A DNA stretch of 64,000 nucleotides from positions 62,001-126,000 of the forward strand of contig NZ_NFJP01000010.1 in the NCBI RefSeq assembly GCF_002159915.1, written 5' to 3'. Both the position numbers and the translations under genes were made by a program. The stretch's first letter is position 1. Every line of letters begins with the position of its first letter. The notes under the pieces are model-generated. The model was not told the origin of the DNA and did not search any database. It worked only from the letters and a program-made list of their open reading frames with translations. The DNA is from Gordonibacter sp. An230 (GTDB taxonomy: Bacteria; Actinomycetota; Coriobacteriia; Coriobacteriales; Eggerthellaceae). This document shows positions 6,327 through 24,568 of the stretch, piece after piece.

Positions 6327-7232
6327 CTACTCGACCGGAAGTTCCAGCAGCTCGACCCCCTCGGGAATCGCCGCGCGGTCGACGACGATCTCGTAGTCCG
6401 AGAACGCACGGGCCTCGGCGCCGTCCTCGATGAGCCGCTTCACCGACACCGCATCGAACAGCTTATGGGCCGGCGCGTTCCCCAGCTTGCTCTCATGCTT
6501 GAACGCGAACAGCTTGCGCAAGGCCATGAGCCCGCGCGCGGCACTGCGGTCGTGCTCGAACATGTTCATGAGCGCCTCGAAGAACAGGTCGAGGTCCTCC
6601 TGGGAGAAGCCCGTCTTCTCGGCGAGCGCGGCGGAGATGAACCCCTCAGCCCGGTACAGCCCGTAGGGCACGTACTGCTTGCGGCCCATCGTCTTCTCTT
6701 TTTCGACGTCCTTCTCGTTCGTCACCGCCATGCGCGTGATGCTCATCTCGAGCGGCAGCACGGGGTCGACCGACTCGGCGAAGCACAGCTGGATGGGGCC
6801 GCGCACCTGGCCGCAGTTCACGTCGGTGGTCATGACCGCGCCGAACGCGCGGATGTCGAAGAAGTTGTCGCACATGAACTTCGTGACCTTGAGCTGGTCC
6901 TCCTTGGCTTTCGGCAGCTTCTTCGGCGCGGGCTTCATGTCGTAGTGCACGTACGCCTTGCGGTTGCGGTCGTTGAGCACGGCCGCCTCCTGCACGTAGA
7001 TCTTGTACCCGAGCTCGCCCTGGGCCACGTCGGGGTCGTCGATCGCCTCGCCTTTCACCAGGTCGACGTAGTTGCGGATCTTGCGCTTGAGGCACACGTC
7101 CGACACGATGCCGCGGCTCGTGTCGGGATCGATGCGCGGCATGTTGCCGGCATCCGGGTCGCCGTTGGGGTTGCCGTTCTTCACGTCGAAGAAGAAGACG
7201 AAGTCGTAGCGGTTCTTGATAGGCTCTGCCAT
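6327..7232 (-). CDS. cas7c: Cas7 (Csd2), type I-C Cascade backbone
   Basis: This 301-residue protein shows the Cas7/Csd2 N-terminal signature RYDFVFFFDVKNGNPNGDPDAGNMPRIDP (quoted here only as the region of residues 8-36), an RRM-fold beginning followed by the NGDP loop. Several copies coat the crRNA spacer in the Cascade complex. It lies between cas8c (9-nt gap) and cas4 (3-nt gap), the canonical type I-C order. Length is normal and no interruption is seen. Confidence 0.96.
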   Translation of the reverse strand: MAEPIKNRYDFVFFFDVKNGNPNGDPDAGNMPRIDPDTSRGIVSDVCLKRKIRNYVDLVKGEAIDDPDVAQGELGYKIYVQEAAVLNDRNRKAYVHYDMKPAPKKLPKAKEDQLKVTKFMCDNFFDIRAFGAVMTTDVNCGQVRGPIQLCFAESVDPVLPLEMSITRMAVTNEKDVEKEKTMGRKQYVPYGLYRAEGFISAALAEKTGFSQEDLDLFFEALMNMFEHDRSAARGLMALRKLFAFKHESKLGNAPAHKLFDAVSVKRLIEDGAEARAFSDYEIVVDRAAIPEGVELLELPVE

Positions 7233-7241
7233 GATGTCCTC

Positions 7242-9068
7242 CTAGTTGGTTTCGGTCTCGTCGTCGGCGCTATCGGCGTCCGCTTCCGCATCGGCCTCGT
7301 CGTCGTGCTTCTTCCACAGGTCGACGCGCTGCTGGTAGTACCCCACGAAGAACTCGCCCTGGTCTTCCGCGTCGAGTGTCTTGGGGAACAGGACCGGCCC
7401 GTCGAGCATCGCCATGATCTCGTCGTTCGCCTTCTCGAACTTCACGCAAAGCCCCGGGTTGAACTTGCGCAGCTTCGACAGATGGTTCTGCGTGTTGTGC
7501 AGCAGATGCGGGAACACGCGGGCGGGCGTCGTGGAAGCGGCCCCGATGTAGCGGTCGCGGATGGTAGCGTTCACCTCGCCGAGCGCGCTTCGCTGCGCGT
7601 GCTCCATGACGGCGAACAGCCTTCCGAGCACGTAACCGCGGTTCGCCCTCTCTTTGTCCAGATTCACGTCCAGACTCCTTTCCTCATCGGCGCGTGCGGC
7701 GCCGTCTTCCCCATTCGAGTTTTCTGCGCCGAGCCGTGCCCTGCGCACAAGGCACGCCTTGAGCAACGCCGCCCGCCGGCCCATGTCCCACGAGTTGCGC
7801 CGCGCATGGTCGGAGCGCATGCGCGAAAGCACCGCGTAGTAGAGGGCCTGCGGAAACGCGCGGCCGGTGAGCATGGCCTCCATGCAGCCGTTCACCAGCG
7901 TCGAAGGCAGCTGGTCGGCCGACCCCATGGGCGCGGTCTGCAGCAACAGCGTGCGAAGCGAGCGGGCGCGCACGTCGGCCATGCTCACATCGCGAAGGTA
8001 CGCTCCGAAGTTCTCGGCCATGCGGCCGAGCGTGCTCGTCTCGAAGAACCGAGCGGCCAAGCGCGCCGCGTTGGGCGCGAGGCCGAGCACGAAGTAGCGC
8101 GTCTCGGTGTCGACGCCGGTCAGGGGAAGGCCGCGCTCCATGCTCTCGAGCGCCGCGCGCACTTCCTGCACGGCGTTCTGGTCCTCGGCCCTGTCGAGCT
8201 CGTCGGGGTCGAGTATCCCCAGCATGAGCAGGTCCTCCGCCGGCGCCGGACGATCCGCCCAGAACACCACCGTCGTCTCGCCGAAGCGCACCCGATGCTC
8301 GCGGTCGGCGCAGAGCTGCCGCAGTGCGGAGCCCGCGTTGAACGCCGCCGCCTCCGAGACCGACGCGTTGTAAGCCTGCGACTTGCCATACGACTCGAAC
8401 GACTGCAGGTTGAACGATACGAGCGACGCTCCGGCCGACTGCGCCCCAGGAACGCCGGTCACCTGGGGAAACAAGCGGGCAAGCGGGCCCTCTTCGCCCG
8501 TGACGGCACATTGGCCAACCACCTCGCCCGTCGCCTGGCCATCGCAATAGGAAGCCCATGCGGCAGCCACCGCGGGCCGCTCGTGCAGTCGCCCCGGGTC
8601 TCCGTCCAGCCGGAACACCACGAAGCCGCCGCCGCTCGCCAACTCCGAGCGCACGCCCTCGTCGAGGTCGGCGTCGCGATCCTCGCGCTCGAAGAAGCGC
8701 AGGACGGCTTGCGCGCCCTCGTCGTCGCATTCGCCCAGCACGGCCTCGTGCAGCGCCCGCGCGCTCGCCAGCTTCTCGGGCCCGCGTTTCTCATCGTAAC
8801 CGAGCAGGTAGGCCGCATTGTCGCACAGGAAGAACGGCAGCATGCCGGTTCCGCTGCGCGTCGTATGCTCGGGCACGCGCAGCGAGACGAACTTCCGCAG
8901 CTCCTTGCCCGTGCCCGCTGTGAGTTGATACGCGCCCAGCAGCCTGCCGTCGCGGGAGAGCTTGAGCTCCCACGCCGCCTTCTCCACGCTCCAATGACGG
9001 GCGGGAACGTCGCGCTCGGGATCGGCCAACAGGCGCTCGTAATACTTGTTGAGCTCTTGCAAGATCAT
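7242..9068 (-). CDS. cas8c: Cas8c (Csd1), large subunit of type I-C Cascade
   Basis: This 608-residue protein starts MILQELNKYYERL and matches the length and N-terminus of Csd1, the large subunit that recognises the PAM. In type I-C an internal start also yields a small Cas11c subunit; I did not fix its start here, but the C-terminal 150 residues (with an IGAASTTPARVFPHLLHNTQNH-type helix region near residues 500-530) are where it would be. The start overlaps the cas5 stop by ATGA, so translation is coupled. The C-terminus is rich in Asp and Glu. Confidence 0.94.
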   Translation of the reverse strand: MILQELNKYYERLLADPERDVPARHWSVEKAAWELKLSRDGRLLGAYQLTAGTGKELRKFVSLRVPEHTTRSGTGMLPFFLCDNAAYLLGYDEKRGPEKLASARALHEAVLGECDDEGAQAVLRFFEREDRDADLDEGVRSELASGGGFVVFRLDGDPGRLHERPAVAAAWASYCDGQATGEVVGQCAVTGEEGPLARLFPQVTGVPGAQSAGASLVSFNLQSFESYGKSQAYNASVSEAAAFNAGSALRQLCADREHRVRFGETTVVFWADRPAPAEDLLMLGILDPDELDRAEDQNAVQEVRAALESMERGLPLTGVDTETRYFVLGLAPNAARLAARFFETSTLGRMAENFGAYLRDVSMADVRARSLRTLLLQTAPMGSADQLPSTLVNGCMEAMLTGRAFPQALYYAVLSRMRSDHARRNSWDMGRRAALLKACLVRRARLGAENSNGEDGAARADEERSLDVNLDKERANRGYVLGRLFAVMEHAQRSALGEVNATIRDRYIGAASTTPARVFPHLLHNTQNHLSKLRKFNPGLCVKFEKANDEIMAMLDGPVLFPKTLDAEDQGEFFVGYYQQRVDLWKKHDDEADAEADADSADDETETN

Positions 9069-9784: not shown

Positions 9785-12082
9785 TTAGCAGCTCAACAGC
9801 TCGAGAACCTCCTCTCCCACCGCGACCAGCCCCACGTCCTCCCGGTAGAAGGATCGACAACCGTCATCTCTCAATATGAGGAACGGCTCAAGCTCCTCGA
9901 CCGCGCCGGTCTTTTTGTATTCGTCTATCTTCCACACAGGTACGCTCACGCTGAACCTCTGCAAGCGCATGGCCATGCCAGCCGGATTTTCGCTGGCAAG
10001 CAGCTCCTTGAGCAGCGTCCGCCCCTCTTCGCCCCATGGCACGAACACGGGAACCGAATCGTCCTCGATGATGCGGTAGTCGAGGGCGCACTGCTCGAAG
10101 GGCATGGTTTTAAATCCTGCGGCGATCAGGTCTTTGGAAGTCAGCTTCTGGAAAATGTGCTTGGCATCGAGGTCTTCCGTGCCGTAGCGCGTCGAGAAGA
10201 AAGCGGGTATGAGCGATTCGTCGACCTTCCCGTCGTTTTCACGGATCACATCACGGGCTATGCTCTTCATTTTCTCGAGCCATGCGCCCGTCTTCTGACG
10301 CTCGCCATCGACAGCGCATTCGAACACGTGCACCATGCCCCCGTCGATCAGACGGCCCTCCCGATTGCAGCGCCCCGCGGCCTGCACGACGGAATCAAGG
10401 CCCGCAAGTTCGCGGTACACCTCGGGAAAATCGACGTCCACGCCGGCCTCCACAAGCTGCGTCGACACGACGACGCAGCGCTGCTTGTCGTCGAGCCTCT
10501 TGCGAATGCGTTCGAGCATGGCGCTGCGATGCGCCGGGATCATGAAAGCGCTTAAATGGAAGAACCCCTCGTCGTACGCGTGTTTTGCATCTGAAAGCTC
10601 GCCGCGCTCCACCGCTCTCGTCACCACGTCGTCATAGATCGTGCGGGCCAGGGCGCGCGTACCCACGACGCAAAGCACCTCATGGCAATCAACGATGCGT
10701 TCAGCGAGGTCAGCCTTCTCAATTGCTCCGAGCGACTCGTAGGCGACCCGCCCTCCGAACGCCTCGTCGAACAAGTCGCGACGCCGCACGATCTCGCATG
10801 GCTCAGCGCCGAACGGCCAAAGCCCTTCCAACGCCGGCTGCGTAGCCGTGCACAGCACGACGCTCGATTCGTAACCCGCCACCAACTCCTCGAGCATGGC
10901 AAGCGAGGGCTTGAGAAGCGAGTCGGGAAGCGTTTGCGCTTCGTCGAGGATGATGACGCTCTTCGCCATGTTGTGCACCTTGCGGCTCTTGCCCGGCTTG
11001 TTCGAGAACAGCGACTCGAACAGCTGCACGTTCGTCGTCACCACGATGGGCGCATCCCAGTTTTGGACAGCGAGTCGCTGCTTGGCCTTCTCCTCGTCGC
11101 CGAGGTCGCTGAAGTCGTAGTTCGAATGATGCTCGAGCACGTTTTCAGAACCAAAGATGGTTTTAAGCGTGCCGGCAGTTTGCTCGACGATACTGGTGAA
11201 CGGAATCGCGACGATGACCCGATCCAGCCCGTGCTCAACCGCATGCCGCAGCCCGAACGCCATCGAGCTGAGCGTCTTACCGCCACCGGTGGGCACCGTC
11301 ATCGTGTAGAGTCCGCAGGGTAGCATGGAGGCCCCAAGGCACTCCTCGTACACCGAGCGGCGCACGCGGTTGACCGGCGTTTCCTTCGCGCTCCCCATGA
11401 GTTCGCTCATATGGGCTTCGAGTTTCGCCAGCAGCTCTTCCATGCTGGCAAGGTCGCGTGCCTCGCGCGCTTCTGCAGCTTCGGGAGTCATGAAGCGCTC
11501 GGTATCCAGATAATCGCTGTCAACAAGCGCCGAATATAAGAAATGTTCGAGCACGAACGTCGAGAACACCTTGCTCCCCGTTCCCTCGAACGTGCGACCA
11601 TAGCGCATGGGGGCTCCCAGTTGCGCAAGATCGGGAAGGCTGATCTCACCCGCTTCGGCCAAGTCGAAAAAAGCGTCATAAGGATCGATAGCGTTTGCAA
11701 GCCGGTCTTTGAGAGGGGTTCGCAAAGAAACCTTCTGCGAGCCAGAGCATTCCGACCAGTTCATGCCGTTAGCCATTCCCCCGTGATGCCCGCAGAGCGC
11801 ATAGGCCATGAACTGGCCGCATGTTGCATACCGTTCGATCGCGATCTTCGCGCCCGCGGTCGAATGATCTACCGGTTTGCCGCCCTCCAAGCGCTTCTGG
11901 AAGCCGGCGCTTGCCTTGCCCGCGTCATGCAGCAAACCGAGCGTGCGCCCCCATGTCCCCATGTCGAATTTCTCTGCGAATGCCTCGGCCCGTCGCGCCA
12001 CCTCGTTCGCATGCTCCGAAAGCGTCTGCCAGGTGGAAACATCTTCAAGATCAGAACCGGTATGAGCGTAATATTCAGGCAT
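9785..12082 (-). CDS. cas3: Cas3 HD nuclease-helicase
   Basis: This 765-residue protein has an N-terminal HD nuclease domain (H24, H52-D53 in LLHDAGK, H73, H99-H100) and a superfamily 2 helicase: Walker A TGGGKT at 265-270, DEAQ at 380-383, a CTATQPAL motif III, and an arginine-finger motif VI near QAAGRCNREG. It unwinds and degrades DNA marked by Cascade. The ATG at 12082 has AAGGA about 7 nt upstream. It is the first gene of the operon, so its upstream gap (12083-12458) should carry the control region for all cas genes. All key residues appear intact. Confidence 0.96.
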   Translation of the reverse strand: MPEYYAHTGSDLEDVSTWQTLSEHANEVARRAEAFAEKFDMGTWGRTLGLLHDAGKASAGFQKRLEGGKPVDHSTAGAKIAIERYATCGQFMAYALCGHHGGMANGMNWSECSGSQKVSLRTPLKDRLANAIDPYDAFFDLAEAGEISLPDLAQLGAPMRYGRTFEGTGSKVFSTFVLEHFLYSALVDSDYLDTERFMTPEAAEAREARDLASMEELLAKLEAHMSELMGSAKETPVNRVRRSVYEECLGASMLPCGLYTMTVPTGGGKTLSSMAFGLRHAVEHGLDRVIVAIPFTSIVEQTAGTLKTIFGSENVLEHHSNYDFSDLGDEEKAKQRLAVQNWDAPIVVTTNVQLFESLFSNKPGKSRKVHNMAKSVIILDEAQTLPDSLLKPSLAMLEELVAGYESSVVLCTATQPALEGLWPFGAEPCEIVRRRDLFDEAFGGRVAYESLGAIEKADLAERIVDCHEVLCVVGTRALARTIYDDVVTRAVERGELSDAKHAYDEGFFHLSAFMIPAHRSAMLERIRKRLDDKQRCVVVSTQLVEAGVDVDFPEVYRELAGLDSVVQAAGRCNREGRLIDGGMVHVFECAVDGERQKTGAWLEKMKSIARDVIRENDGKVDESLIPAFFSTRYGTEDLDAKHIFQKLTSKDLIAAGFKTMPFEQCALDYRIIEDDSVPVFVPWGEEGRTLLKELLASENPAGMAMRLQRFSVSVPVWKIDEYKKTGAVEELEPFLILRDDGCRSFYREDVGLVAVGEEVLELLSC

Positions 12083-12285
12083 ATGCCGTCCTTTTTCGGA
12101 CCGTTATTGTAATGGCTACCAGCATTGTATCCTACCTTCATTTGGCAACTATCCCTATACTGGGACTCGCAGGCAAGAACCTAATCGAAATCGTTATTTC
12201 TTCTGGCGCGTGGCGCGAAAGGACACACATATCCCGATCTTGCAGAACCATGACCTGAATCGCACTTTTAGCTTACCCTTCATTC

Positions 12286-12320
12286 TATTTCCTTTATAGA
12301 TTGGGTTAAGTTAATACTTA
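12286..12320 (-). promoter_or_regulatory. Candidate cas-operon promoter overlapped by a guide-like target
   Basis: On the minus strand TATAAA (12298-12293) lies in an AT-rich stretch and would start a transcript running into cas3 with a leader of about 200 nt. No convincing -35 hexamer is seen. On the plus strand, 12296-12311 (ATAGATTGGGTTAAGT) matches the spacer-like sequence of the adjacent crRNA-like element at 15 of 16 positions, the only mismatch being position 6, and is preceded by TTT, close to the type I-C PAM TTC. Alternative: a second weak promoter, TTGCCT-17-GATAGT, lies closer to cas3. Confidence 0.45.
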
Positions 12321-12404
12321 TTACGACACCCGTAGTATATATAAAAATGGGAGGCGCGTCTACAAGACGCGCCTCCCACCGTCACACACTTAACCCATTC
12401 TATA
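12295..12404. repeat. Nested inverted repeats between hipA-like gene and cas3
   Basis: An outer 16-nt inverted repeat (12295-12310 and 12389-12404, 15 of 16 paired) encloses a perfect 12-bp stem (12349-12360 and 12366-12377) with a 5-nt loop. The inner stem is a terminator. The outer pair is what a crRNA-like guide and its nearby target would look like; it is also what a small inverted-repeat (MITE-like) insertion would look like, since both ends read TATA. I favour the guide reading because a CRISPR-like repeat abuts it at the exact base. Confidence 0.7.
12338..12377 (-). terminator. Rho-independent terminator
   Basis: Read on the minus strand, GGGAGGCGCGTC (12377-12366) pairs perfectly with GACGCGCCTCCC (12360-12349) across a 5-nt loop, and ATTTTTATATATA follows directly. 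It would end transcription from the hipA-like gene and from the repeat-like element, insulating cas3 from both. Confidence 0.88.
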
Positions 12405-12430
12405 TTTCAATCCACGCATTTGTGCGACAA
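12338..12430 (-). ncRNA. Candidate crRNA-like regulatory RNA with solitary type I-C-like repeat
   Basis: On the minus strand 12428-12404 is a 25-nt type I-C-like repeat: it starts GTCGCAC and ends GCGTGGATTGAAAT, with a CGCA/TGCG mini-stem. The resident array repeat is 31 nt and ends GCGGGTTGAAAC, so this is a divergent, shortened copy. Its 3' end is followed at once by a spacer-like stretch starting ATAGAATGGGTTAAGTGTGT and then by a terminator. TATAAA (12442-12437) sits 8 nt before the repeat. The product would be an RNA of about 85-95 nt containing one crRNA-like handle and guide. Whether Cas5 processes it is unknown. Confidence 0.5.
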
Positions 12431-12458
12431 AACCAGTTTATACCACTTTGTACGGCAT

Positions 12459-13709
12459 TTACTTCTCTGCCACGTCCTTCAAAATCTTACCAGGATCGAC
12501 GGTCGGCAATACGAGCAGCATTGCAGCGCGACGTGCAATATAGCTATCCAAACACCTCAACCGCTCGTCGCTGAAATAGTTGCGGACATCGCTCTCATCG
12601 AACTCGTCCATGACCGGATGGCGCTCGAAGACGAATCCGGCAAGCCGCTCCAATTGCGCTTTCTGCACCGGACCGATCACAAGAGCCGCCTGCTCGTCGA
12701 GCGAGGGAGCGAACGCGCCGCGGCTGATCGACGCCTTCCGCATCATGGCATCCACGGTCAACTCATCAGGCATTGCGCTCGCGAACAACCCTAGGTTGTG
12801 ATCGAACAGCGGGGCCATCCCCCGCACGATGCCCGTACCGTTGTCGCGCAGGACGCCGTAATTTCCCATATGACGATCCTCGTTGCAGATGAGCGCGTCG
12901 AATACGAGCATCGACTTGAACTTCTCAAGCTCTGCCTCGCCGAGGTTCGCGAAATACGCAAGCGCCTCGCGCAGGTTCATGTCCTTGAAACGCTCGGGGC
13001 GAACCGCGAAGCCGAAAGGTACGAACGCGACGTCCTTCGAGCAGAATAGTTCGCAGGTGGAGCAGAGCTTCCTCTTCCACAACGCCAAGTCGTATGAAAC
13101 CGCGTCGATCCCCATGCGGTACGCGATCTGGAAAGATAGATATTCCGAATAGGGCTCCTTACCCACGTTCGCGCCCTCGAACAGGTGGCCGGCCTTGAAC
13201 AGCAGGCGCTTCGACCCCGCTGCGCGCCACGCCTTGGGGAACATGCCGCCGATGGTGAGCTCGCCGGGGATGCCGCCGTCGGCAAGCGCGTCTGAGACGA
13301 CACCCGTGTACGCGACAAGCTGCAATGCAGCGCTCATCTCATTGTCGTACAGGTTCCATTCGCCGAACGAGCCCTCGGAGCCTTGGGGGACAACCCAATA
13401 GGAATCGTTGAGCGAAAGGCCCTTGCTCACATCGATGATCGATTTGGCGTCATCGGACTCGATGCCGCACGACTTGAGTATCTCGTCAACATAGGCGCGA
13501 TTCTTCGGGATACGCCGTCGGTGAATCCATTCGATCAGGCGCTCGCGAGTTGCCTCCCCGTCGAACGACAAGGGGAGAAGGCTGCTTGCCGACGAGTCCG
13601 TCGAGAGTATCTCGATCGAAAGATCTCCGTACTCGCCTCGCGACATGCGAAAGACGATCAGAACCCGATCGAACAGCCGCAGCTCGTATATGTCGCTCTC
13701 GCGCATCAT
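12459..13709 (-). CDS. HipA-like Ser/Thr protein kinase, no antitoxin gene beside it
   Basis: This 416-residue protein has the HipA/PI3K-like kinase core: a nucleotide-binding Lys in LLFKAGH (K172), the catalytic segment CNEDRHMGNYG (D278, N283) and a metal-binding PLFDHN segment (D303). HipA kinases are toxins that phosphorylate targets such as glutamyl-tRNA synthetase; other relatives have different targets. No HipB-like HTH gene is adjacent on either side. The gene reads towards cas3 and ends 30 nt before the crRNA-like element, so it is either a chance neighbour or part of a guarded CRISPR locus. There is no Shine-Dalgarno sequence; a -10 box placed 6 nt before the ATG suggests a leaderless mRNA. 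An excisionase-type or phage-resistance role is also possible. Confidence 0.75.
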   Translation of the reverse strand: MMRESDIYELRLFDRVLIVFRMSRGEYGDLSIEILSTDSSASSLLPLSFDGEATRERLIEWIHRRRIPKNRAYVDEILKSCGIESDDAKSIIDVSKGLSLNDSYWVVPQGSEGSFGEWNLYDNEMSAALQLVAYTGVVSDALADGGIPGELTIGGMFPKAWRAAGSKRLLFKAGHLFEGANVGKEPYSEYLSFQIAYRMGIDAVSYDLALWKRKLCSTCELFCSKDVAFVPFGFAVRPERFKDMNLREALAYFANLGEAELEKFKSMLVFDALICNEDRHMGNYGVLRDNGTGIVRGMAPLFDHNLGLFASAMPDELTVDAMMRKASISRGAFAPSLDEQAALVIGPVQKAQLERLAGFVFERHPVMDEFDESDVRNYFSDERLRCLDSYIARRAAMLLVLPTVDPGKILKDVAEK

Positions 13710-13715
13710 GAGCGC

Positions 13716-13744
13716 ATTGTAGCATGGCGGGACCGCGCTGTCCG
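13716..13744 (-). promoter_or_regulatory. Promoter of the hipA-like gene, leaderless
   Basis: On the minus strand TACAAT (13721-13716) is preceded at 17 nt by CGGACA and followed after 6 nt by the ATG at 13709, so the predicted transcription start coincides with the start codon. This explains the missing ribosome-binding site. Confidence 0.55.
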
Positions 13745-14187
13745 GACGCCCCCCTCAGCACCCAAGCCGGTTGGAGCGTGGCGCAGCGAGCCTTCGTATA
13801 GCGCGAGATCGCGATGTCAGCGCCTCAACCAACATTACCGTGCGTAGCGCATGGCCGAATTCCAACAACGAGGTCCGAGCCCCAACCCAGGATGCAGCCG
13901 ACAGCCCAAACGGACGAAATTGAGCAAACCCCTTCGCTCGTGACGTCAGCGTTTCGAACTCGCACGCCAGAAAAGCCATCTCGATCAGCCAGAACGCCAT
14001 CGTAGACTTGCAGCCTGGACCCCACCCGAAAACCCGACCCCTCGCTCTCGGGAAAGCGGCGATTCCTCGTTGGCTCGTCAGCAAAACCGCACAGGCGGCC
14101 TCGCTCCGGAAGCGCATGGTTCCCGGCGGGATGCAACCCCAATGCCCGCCTACAGCAAACCCCCTATACCCATCGGCGGCAACCTCG
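13745..14187. other. Intergenic stretch between two divergent leaderless genes
   Basis: This is the bulk of a 490-base gap between the divergent hipA-like and Nudix genes. Open frames on both strands (for instance minus 14219-13755) show no recognisable domain, atypical composition and no ribosome-binding site. I see no antitoxin, RNA gene or repeat that I can support. It may hold an intergenic repeat family of the genome, which cannot be judged from one copy. Confidence 0.4.
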
Positions 14188-23760: not shown

Positions 23761-23782
23761 GGCCGTTCCTTTCCCGAATCAA

Positions 23783-23805
23783 AATAGTTTGATAATCAAA
23801 GTATT
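23783..23805 (-). promoter_or_regulatory. FabT-type operator before acpP
   Basis: TTTGATAATCAAA at 23788-23800 is a 6-1-6 palindrome, flanked by ATA and TAT. It is nearly identical to the site before the FabT-like gene and to the AGTTTGATTATCAAA-type box known for Firmicutes FabT. It lies between the regulator gene and acpP, where binding would control acpP-fab-acc transcription. Confidence 0.75.
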
Positions 23806-23977
23806 TCCGTAGGGATAATGATATGGGGAGGCCCGTCCCCTTGCAAGGCACCCGCGCGCCCCTCCACGATATCTGCGCGCGAAAAGGCCTGCGAAGCCGC
23901 GCAGCGCCAACGACGGTCGCGCCCTCCCACCCACCGAAGATCGCCAAGACGCAAACGCACCTTCGAATCCGCGATCT

Positions 23978-24448
23978 TCATGCGCGCTCGTCGAAAAACG
24001 CCTTCACTTTGGCAAGCGCCTCAGCCAGCACGCGTTCCTCCTCTTCGCTGAGATCCGCTAGCGCCTCGTCAATCATCTGATGGTGAAACAAATTGTGCGC
24101 ACGCAGCACTTGTCGGCCCTTCTTCGTCAGCGACACGAGCACGACGCGTCGGTCGTCTTCGGAACGGGAACGTTCGACGAAGCCTTTGCGCACCAGCTTC
24201 GCCACCGCGGTCGTGAGCGTGGCCAGCGTCACTCCAAGGCGTGCTGCCACCACGTTCATGGGACTGCGTTCGTGAAGCCCCATGGCCACGATGGTGTGCA
24301 CCTCGGTGATGGTGAGCCCGTGCGTGAGCCGGTTGTCGAGCGAACGCTCCTCGATACGCAGAATGGAGTTGAACGTGCCGGACAAGAGCCCGTCAAGCTC
24401 CTCCCGGCGTCTTTGCGACGCATCGGCTCCTATGGCCGGACCGTCCAT
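23978..24448 (-). CDS. fabT: MarR-family regulator, FabT-like
   Basis: This protein of about 156 residues has the winged-helix core of MarR (GLTITEVHTIVAMG, VAARLGVTLATLTTAVAKLVRKGFVER, DDRRVVLVSLTKKG). In Firmicutes FabT represses the fab operon with acyl-ACP as co-repressor. I choose the ATG at 24448 because GGAAGGGAG precedes it; two ATGs upstream at 24481/24478 overlap the predicted -10 box. It is first in the operon direction, 217 bases before acpP, and has its own operator, so autoregulation is likely. Function is inferred from sequence, site and position together. Confidence 0.82.
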   Translation of the reverse strand: MDGPAIGADASQRRREELDGLLSGTFNSILRIEERSLDNRLTHGLTITEVHTIVAMGLHERSPMNVVAARLGVTLATLTTAVAKLVRKGFVERSRSEDDRRVVLVSLTKKGRQVLRAHNLFHHQMIDEALADLSEEEERVLAEALAKVKAFFDERA

Positions 24449-24476
24449 TCTGCGCTCCCTTCCGTTCCCTGGGCGC

Positions 24477-24509
24477 ATCATAGCGCAAAAAGTTTGATTA
24501 TCAAAGTAT
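24477..24509 (-). promoter_or_regulatory. fabT promoter with overlapping FabT-type operator
   Basis: On the minus strand TTGATA (24504-24499) and TATGAT (24482-24477) are 16 nt apart, a good sigma-A promoter. The palindrome around TTTGATTATCAAA (24493-24505) covers the -35 box, so a bound repressor would block polymerase. Confidence 0.75.
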
Positions 24510-24568
24510 TTTCCCGATCCGATCCGGCCCCCTTCGTCAGCCCTCGCCCCGAATGGACGGTCCTTCGC

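What the first reader, a model, noticed from the sequence alone, without database searches (positions are those of the whole stretch)
12286..12442. Solitary CRISPR-like repeat and guide aimed at the cas operon's own promoter
Seen: on the minus strand TATAAA (12442-12437), then 8 nt later a 25-nt type I-C-like repeat (12428-12404, ending GGATTGAAAT), directly followed by ATAGAATGGGTTAAGT, then a strong terminator. The sequence ATAGATTGGGTTAAGT at 12296-12311 on the plus strand matches the guide at 1-5 and 7-16. The single mismatch is position 6, the position type I crRNAs leave unpaired. A TTT flank, close to the I-C PAM TTC, precedes it. The target covers a TATAAA box pointing at cas3. Known: CreA and CreR, degenerate crRNA-like guides in other type I (and some type V) loci, use short seed matches to repress toxin or cas promoters without cleavage. 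Inference: this is a CreR-like autoregulator of a type I-C operon that throttles cas expression when Cascade is plentiful and releases it when Cascade is lost or blocked. I know of no such element described for Coriobacteriia.
Basis: partly seen in the sequence, partly recalled or inferred. Interest (0 to 1): 0.93.

Follow-up and report, generated by a model that had tools for sequence, protein, structure and literature searches.

The report
CRISPR-derived guide silencing a tiny gene
Next to a type I-C CRISPR operon of a Coriobacteriia bacterium lies one stray, shrunken CRISPR repeat whose short guide almost certainly directs the CRISPR complex to silence a neighbouring promoter region rather than cut a virus; relatives carry the same device with different guides and matching targets, and here the gene next to the target is a hidden 29-residue peptide, possibly a toxin that makes the cell depend on its CRISPR complex.

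Summary
In detail: a solitary degenerate I-C repeat (12428-12404, minus), a guide (12403-12388), a terminator, and a plus-strand target (12296-12311, TTT flank) mismatched only at position 6; guide and target each occur once in the genome. Of 74 I-C loci, 33 (Coriobacteriia and Clostridia; 25 different guides) carry a solitary repeat whose guide matches a nearby target. The flank is TTC in 30, CTC in 2, TTT only here. Matches fill positions 1-5, 7-11 and 13-17, while 6, 12 and 18 are at chance: the signature of a Cascade-bound guide. Swapped guides fail. The cas3-promoter interpretation is only partly right. In relatives the target sits at the cas3 or cas5 promoter (CreR-like). In the window it abuts the ribosome-binding site of an unannotated 29-codon ORF under purifying selection, while cas3 has its own conserved promoter further downstream. 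The only relative with the same ORF (G063) has lost cas3, cas4 and cas1 but keeps Cascade genes, guide, co-substituted target and ORF, as expected of a CreTA-like addiction module. Repression is near certain by comparison; toxicity, and whether cas3 is also throttled, are untested. The held literature reports CreR only for I-B, I-E and V-A.

The parts
12435..12440 (-). -10 box (TAAACT; TATAAA 12442-12437 is the alternative register) of the guide-RNA gene, 6-8 nt before the repeat
   Evidence: a -10-like hexamer scores >=6 at this place in 17 of 33 relatives against 7 of 33 in a control window 100 nt upstream
12404..12428 (-). degenerate solitary CRISPR repeat (psi-repeat) GTCGCACAAATGCGTGGATTGAAAT; handle TGGATTGAAAT 12414-12404; stem CGCA/TGCG
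   Evidence: stems of relatives differ in sequence but stay complementary
12379..12403 (-). guide; positions 1-5, 7-11 and 12-16 (12403-12388) match the target
12346..12380 (-). intrinsic terminator of the guide RNA; its second arm holds the -35 of the next promoter
   Evidence: fold z = -7.6
12334..12362 (-). promoter of the small-ORF transcript, TAGACG-17-TATACT
   Evidence: homologous TTGACC-17-TATAAT in L047
12296..12311 (+). target (protospacer) ATAGATTGGGTTAAGT
12293..12295 (+). flank TTT in the place of PAM TTC (TTC in 30 of 33 loci)
12290..12295 (-). Shine-Dalgarno AAAGGA of the small ORF, overlapping the flank
12194..12283 (-). small ORF MKGKLKVRFRSWFCKIGICVSFRATRQKK, 29 aa, the probable regulated gene
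   Evidence: homologue at the same place in G063 (E = 1.6e-5 over a whole genome); changes by codon position 11/3/13, BLOSUM 77 against a simulated maximum of 66
12124..12129 (-). probable -10 (TACAAT) of cas3's own promoter, conserved in L045, L046 and L047
9785..12082 (-). cas3
   Evidence: TIGR01587, TIGR01596
9065..9730 (-). cas5c (repeat-processing Cas5d family)
   Evidence: TIGR01876
7242..9068 (-). cas8c
   Evidence: TIGR01863
6327..7232 (-). cas7 (Csd2)
   Evidence: TIGR02589
4386..6323 (-). cas4, cas1, cas2
   Evidence: cas1 TIGR03640
1214..4199 (-). CRISPR array, about 46 repeats GTCGAGCCCTCACGGGCTCGCGGGTTGAAAC

Best explanation
A solitary-repeat RNA gene (about 12430-12340, minus) makes a crRNA-like RNA. 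Cas5c/Cas8c/Cas7 take it up by its repeat-derived handle, and the loaded Cascade binds the 12296-12311 site through three 5-nt blocks (1-5, 7-11, 13-16). Pairing ends near position 17, too short for Cas3 cutting, so Cascade acts as a roadblock. It represses the transcript that starts at the promoter 12362-12334 and whose first gene is the 29-codon ORF 12283-12194. cas3, next downstream with no terminator between, may be lowered too, but has its own promoter. When Cascade is lost, blocked by an anti-CRISPR or saturated by array crRNAs, the small peptide is released. Shown by sequence: architecture, covariation, Cascade-type pairing register, selection on the peptide. Inferred: transcription, loading, repression. 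Open: what the peptide does; a toxin (CreTA-like guard) is my leading guess at about 0.4.
For: Covariation: 33 of 74 I-C loci have repeat, guide and target; own-guide scores total 322 against a maximum of 236 in 20,000 guide swaps; only 1% of swapped pairs reach 9/10; 32 of 33 loci have exactly one qualifying pair. Register: matches by position 33,33,32,33,33,7,33,32,29,31,33,11,28,27,23,20,22,8,8,6; positions 13-17 120/165 against 6/12/18 26/99, Fisher p = 2e-13; positions 12 and 18 alone, not used in the selection, p = 1e-9. Flank TTC 30, CTC 2, TTT 1; TTC is the documented I-C PAM (PMC7913775). Target on the antisense strand in 32 of 33. Nearest homologue G063: guide positions 9-11 changed GGT to TAC together with the target. 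The same scan gives 0 of 15 in other Actinomycetota I-C loci. Small-ORF conservation. G063 keeps cas5, cas8, cas7, guide, target and ORF although cas3 has a stop at about codon 301, cas4 is missing and cas1 is reduced to 35 residues. The psi-repeat handle follows the lineage's own array repeat in Clostridia (TGAGTTGAAAT in both).
Against: No RNA or protein data. The window alone has TTT instead of TTC. The genome with the most similar cas genes (G069, effector genes about 97%) lacks the whole module, and 41 of 74 loci show none. The unbound RNA is predicted to pair the repeat's 5' part with GTGTGAC after the guide rather than to form the 4-bp repeat hairpin. The psi-repeat handle differs at 3 of 11 positions from the array's. 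The small ORF has only one homologue.
Confidence: 0.85

Rival explanations
1. CreR proper: the guide throttles the cas operon itself. The small ORF is only a leader or upstream ORF of the cas3 transcript.
For: In most of the 33 relatives the target lies at the cas3 or cas5 promoter or leader with no gene between; no terminator between the small ORF and cas3 in the window.
Against: Target 214 nt from cas3; conserved cas3-proximal promoter block also in the module-less G069; the small ORF is protein-conserved; G063 keeps the device with a dead cas3.
Confidence: 0.35
2. The two copies are an inverted-repeat operator for an ordinary repressor, or a purely RNA-RNA antisense pair (the guide is complementary to the 5' leader).
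For: The guide strand is antisense to the transcript in 32 of 33 loci, so direct pairing with mRNA is geometrically possible.
Against: 25 unrelated guide sequences; free positions 6, 12 and 18; a near-constant TTC flank; psi-repeat immediately before the guide; in several loci the target covers -35 or -10 boxes, which are not transcribed.
Confidence: 0.03
3. A relic of an old CRISPR array whose last spacer happens to match nearby DNA.
For: The repeat is degenerate and differs from the present array repeat.
Against: Covariation across 33 loci, the repeated position next to the promoter, own promoter and terminator.
Confidence: 0.01
4. The regulated small ORF is not a toxin but a small regulator or accessory protein of the CRISPR locus.
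For: In G020 the gene next to the target is a 55-59-aa HTH_17 protein (Pfam E = 1.1e-6), a DNA-binding fold.
Against: The window's peptide has no recognised domain; G063 keeps it without cas3 or cas1.
Confidence: 0.3

Closest known systems
CreR, cas-regulating RNAs (reviewed in PMC13131331, and PMC12737573)
   Same: Solitary degenerate repeat by the cas operon, limited seed complementarity, predicted Cascade-guided repression without cutting; most of the 33 loci fit
   Different: Type I-C (held papers name I-B, I-E and V-A only); in the window the target serves a small ORF rather than a cas promoter
CreTA, CRISPR-repressed toxin-antitoxin (PMC12737573, PMC9458426, PMC10097628)
   Same: crRNA-like gene plus a small gene whose leader or promoter it targets, beside the cas genes; kept with Cascade when cas3 and cas1 are lost (G063)
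   Different: I-C instead of I-B or I-F; the small gene is conserved as a peptide, whereas described CreT toxins are RNAs; toxicity unknown
crRNA-like regulatory elements surveyed by Shmakov et al. 2023 (doi 10.1093/nar/gkad495; not held, abstract known from memory; citation seen)
   Same: Standalone repeats with spacers partly complementary to cas promoters or cargo, mostly in type I
   Different: Whether I-C or Coriobacteriia were in that survey could not be checked
Racr, viral RNA anti-CRISPRs including RacrIC1 (PMC10651486)
   Same: Solitary I-C repeat unit after a promoter
   Different: Racrs are encoded by viruses or plasmids and act as repeat mimics; this one is chromosomal and has a covarying guide

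Membership tests
crRNA-like guide of a type I-C Cascade | I-C effector genes cas5c, cas8c, cas7 adjacent | tested here: met
crRNA-like guide of a type I-C Cascade | Target with PAM TTC and seed pairing, every sixth position unpaired | tested here: met
   Family-wide; the window has TTT, so its PAM is non-consensus
CreR | Degenerate repeat outside the array at the cas locus | tested here: met
CreR | Guide complementary to a cas promoter | tested here: inconclusive
   Met in most relatives; in the window the target is upstream of the small ORF, 214 nt from cas3, cas3 with its own promoter block
CreR | Cas-dependent repression of cas expression | not testable with these tools
   needs RNA data or a reporter
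CreTA | A small gene whose promoter or leader is the target, inside the CRISPR locus | tested here: met
CreTA | The small gene is toxic when derepressed | not testable with these tools
   no known family
CreTA | Toxin acts as RNA with a minimal ORF of rare arginine codons, as in haloarchaeal CreT | tested here: not met
   The encoded peptide is under purifying selection
CreTA | Cascade retained where nuclease and adaptation genes are lost | tested here: met
   One locus, G063
Racr | Encoded on a virus or plasmid | tested here: not met
   Chromosomal cas locus; the psi-repeat-guide patterns of this and two related loci are absent from viral contigs

The most novel reading that the evidence does not exclude
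A type I-C CreTA-like guard whose toxin is a genuine 28-29-aa cationic peptide: Cascade loaded with the stray guide keeps the peptide silent, so loss or anti-CRISPR blockade of Cascade releases it. Related loci have swapped the cargo (HTH_17 protein in G020, a different 32-aa amphipathic ORF in G062) while keeping the guide device, so guides and cargoes are modular.
Probability: 0.4. Interest if true: 0.86.

Novelty: new variant of a known kind. Interest (0 to 1): 0.74.

Why it matters
It extends RNA-guided control by a CRISPR effector to subtype I-C, in gut Coriobacteriia (including a genome of Eggerthella lenta size) and Clostridia, and supplies 25 naturally covarying guide-target pairs that read out, without experiment, which positions I-C Cascade uses for binding without cutting. 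The hidden peptide gives a directly testable candidate for a CRISPR addiction toxin, and every such guide is a predicted sensor of anti-CRISPR attack.

Tried and rejected
(a) Inverted-repeat operator and antisense RNA: rejected by free positions 6, 12 and 18, the TTC flank and 25 unrelated guides. (b) Array relic: rejected by covariation. (c) An early scan used loci that were not oriented; redone with oriented loci. (d) Reading the target-overlapping TATAAA as the cas3 -10: set aside for the promoter 12362-12334 shared with L047 and the cas3-proximal TACAAT; the scan's second candidate TTAACC-16-TAGAAT (12309-12282) is not excluded. (f) Phage copies of the psi-repeat-guide of three loci: none. 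(g) Rfam: no meaningful match. (h) Laying out the whole genome and a Clostridia-wide search centred on L032 were not available. (i) Shmakov et al. 2023 could not be opened.

Full report
WHAT IS THERE. On the minus strand, a -10-like box (TATAAA 12442-12437, or TAAACT 12440-12435) is followed by a 25-nt shortened I-C repeat (12428-12404), the guide ATAGAATGGGTTAAGT (12403-12388) and a strong terminator (12380-12346; fold z -7.6). On the plus strand, TTT-ATAGATTGGGTTAAGT lies at 12293-12311 with a single mismatch at guide position 6. Chance does not give this (0 of 100 shuffles), and in the whole 3.88-Mb genome the guide and the target each occur once. The downstream operon is a complete type I-C system (cas3, cas5c, cas8c, cas7, cas4, cas1, cas2) with an array of about 46 repeats. 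The stray repeat is not a copy of that array's repeat: the handle differs at 3 of 11 positions and the stem is cut to 4 bp, as described for ectopic psi-repeats (PMC9458426).

THE COVARIATION TEST. I collected I-C loci by cas3 and cas5 similarity, fetched and oriented them, and searched each cas3 upstream region and cas3-cas5 gap for a repeat 3' end followed by a guide that matches a nearby target at positions 1-5 and 7-11. Of 74 loci, 33 are positive; 32 of these have exactly one qualifying pair. The guides fall into 25 clusters sharing fewer than 12 of 17 positions. Own guides score 322 in total; the best of 20,000 random reassignments scores 236, and only 1% of swapped pairs reach 9 of 10. 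The scan finds nothing in 15 I-C loci of other Actinomycetota. The nearest homologue of the window's element, in G063, has guide positions 9-11 changed from GGT to TAC and the target changed in the same way.

WHY IT IS CASCADE. With 33 pairs the matches per position are 33,33,32,33,33,7,33,32,29,31,33,11,28,27,23,20,22,8,8,6. Positions 6, 12 and 18 sit at the composition baseline of 0.31 (p = 0.93, 0.46 and 0.85) while 13-17 are far above it (p from 3e-10 to 5e-4). Positions 12 and 18 were not used in finding the pairs, and their contrast with 13-17 gives p = 1e-9. That type I Cascade flips out every sixth base is established knowledge; neither an operator palindrome nor an antisense RNA would show it. 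The flank is TTC in 30 loci, CTC in 2 and TTT only in the window; TTC is the I-C PAM (PMC7913775). Complementarity ends at about 17 nt. The antisense strand is the target strand in 32 of 33 loci. Repeat stems differ in sequence between loci but stay complementary, and in Clostridia the unusual handle TGAGTTGAAAT is shared by stray repeat and array.

ANATOMY IN RELATIVES. Three arrangements occur: psi-repeat in the operon's direction upstream of cas3 (16 loci, Coriobacteriia); psi-repeat antisense in the cas3-cas5 gap with the target just before cas5 (12 loci, including G053, whose 3,632,260 bp equals, from memory, E. lenta DSM 2243); psi-repeat antisense upstream of cas3 (5 Clostridia MAGs). 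By a simple promoter score the target overlaps the -10 (L039-L043), the -35 (L132, L141, L142, L052), or the stretch from -10 to the ribosome-binding site (L032, L034, L038, L054, L121, L136). Where it abuts the ribosome-binding site, the GAA opposite the PAM is the start of the Shine-Dalgarno GAAGG. These loci fit CreR, cas autorepression by a crRNA-like RNA; the held papers name I-B, I-E and V-A for it (PMC13131331).

WHAT THE WINDOW'S GUIDE CONTROLS. In the window the target abuts the Shine-Dalgarno AAAGGA (12295-12290) of an ORF of 29 codons (12283-12194), MKGKLKVRFRSWFCKIGICVSFRATRQKK. The best promoter before it (TAGACG-17-TATACT, 12362-12334) starts inside the guide gene's terminator, as does its counterpart TTGACC-17-TATAAT in G063. 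G063 has a homologous ORF at the same place, MRGKIKIHFRTWFCRLRIGIAFGFKRSK (E = 1.6e-5 against the whole genome). Over 23 codons the changes fall 11/3/13 on codon positions, and the amino-acid similarity (BLOSUM 77) exceeds all 20,000 simulations (maximum 66), so the peptide is under selection. No family is known. cas3 starts 214 nt after the target, behind a promoter-like block (TACAAT 12129-12124) that is conserved in G020, G063 and G069. G069, with effector genes about 97% identical, lacks the entire guide-ORF module. Hence the module is separable from the cas3 promoter, and the first regulated gene is the peptide. As no terminator lies between, read-through control of cas3 is not excluded.

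WHY A GUARD IS PLAUSIBLE. In G063, a single-contig genome, cas3 has an in-frame stop at about codon 301, cas4 is missing and cas1 is reduced to 35 residues, while cas5, cas8 and cas7 are open and the guide, co-substituted target and peptide ORF are kept. Retention of Cascade without immunity is what an addiction module predicts and what pure cas3 autoregulation does not. It is one locus and the decay may be recent. Related loci hold other cargo at the same place: an HTH_17 protein in G020 (Pfam E = 1.1e-6) and a 32-residue amphipathic ORF in G062, where one guide has two TTC-flanked targets. I put the toxin reading at about 0.4.

WEAK POINTS. No expression data; the only TTT flank of 33; one homologue of the peptide; 41 loci without the element; the free RNA may not fold the short repeat hairpin. 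The survey most likely to overlap with this work (Shmakov et al. 2023, cited within PMC10651486) was not held, so I claim a new variant, not a new kind.

Noticed in passing
L057 (G062), oriented 7061-7612: One guide with two TTC-flanked targets: one over the guide gene's own promoter, one before a 32-aa amphipathic ORF (MEKLVGFAERLVKLVREIVFLIQEFTNLLRTS); cas1 of this locus appears frameshifted.
   Followed up: partly
L045 (G020) 8032-8210: The target abuts the ribosome-binding site of a 55-59-aa HTH_17 protein placed between the guide gene and cas3.
   Followed up: partly
L039-L043 (Clostridia MAGs), upstream of cas3: Guide gene on the antisense strand; the target covers the -10 box of a consensus-like TTGACA-17-TATAAT cas3 promoter, a very clean CreR-like layout.
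   Followed up: partly
L056 (G053, 3,632,260 bp, the size of the E. lenta type strain from memory), oriented 9967-10128: Stray repeat, guide and TTC target in the cas3-cas5 gap, in what is probably the genetically tractable E. lenta DSM 2243.
   Followed up: partly
L047 (G063), oriented 8718-8722 and 13568-13756: cas3 interrupted by a stop codon, cas4 missing and cas1 nearly all deleted, while cas5, cas8, cas7, cas2 and the array remain.
   Followed up: yes
window 12459-13709 (-): HipA_C kinase-like gene directly upstream of the guide gene, with PADLOC hits to PDC-M03A; a similar gene lies at the same place in L045 and L046.
   Followed up: no
window 23782-23806 and 24487-24511: Two near-identical palindromes (AGTTTGATNATCAAAGT) flank a MarR-like gene (23978-24481) next to a fatty-acid synthesis gene cluster; they resemble FabT operators.
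   Followed up: no
L021/L059 (Gordonibacter) and L046: A second CRISPR array with a different repeat (GTCGCGCCCC...GGGCGCGTGGGTTGAAAC) lies upstream of cas3, in addition to the array after cas2.
   Followed up: no
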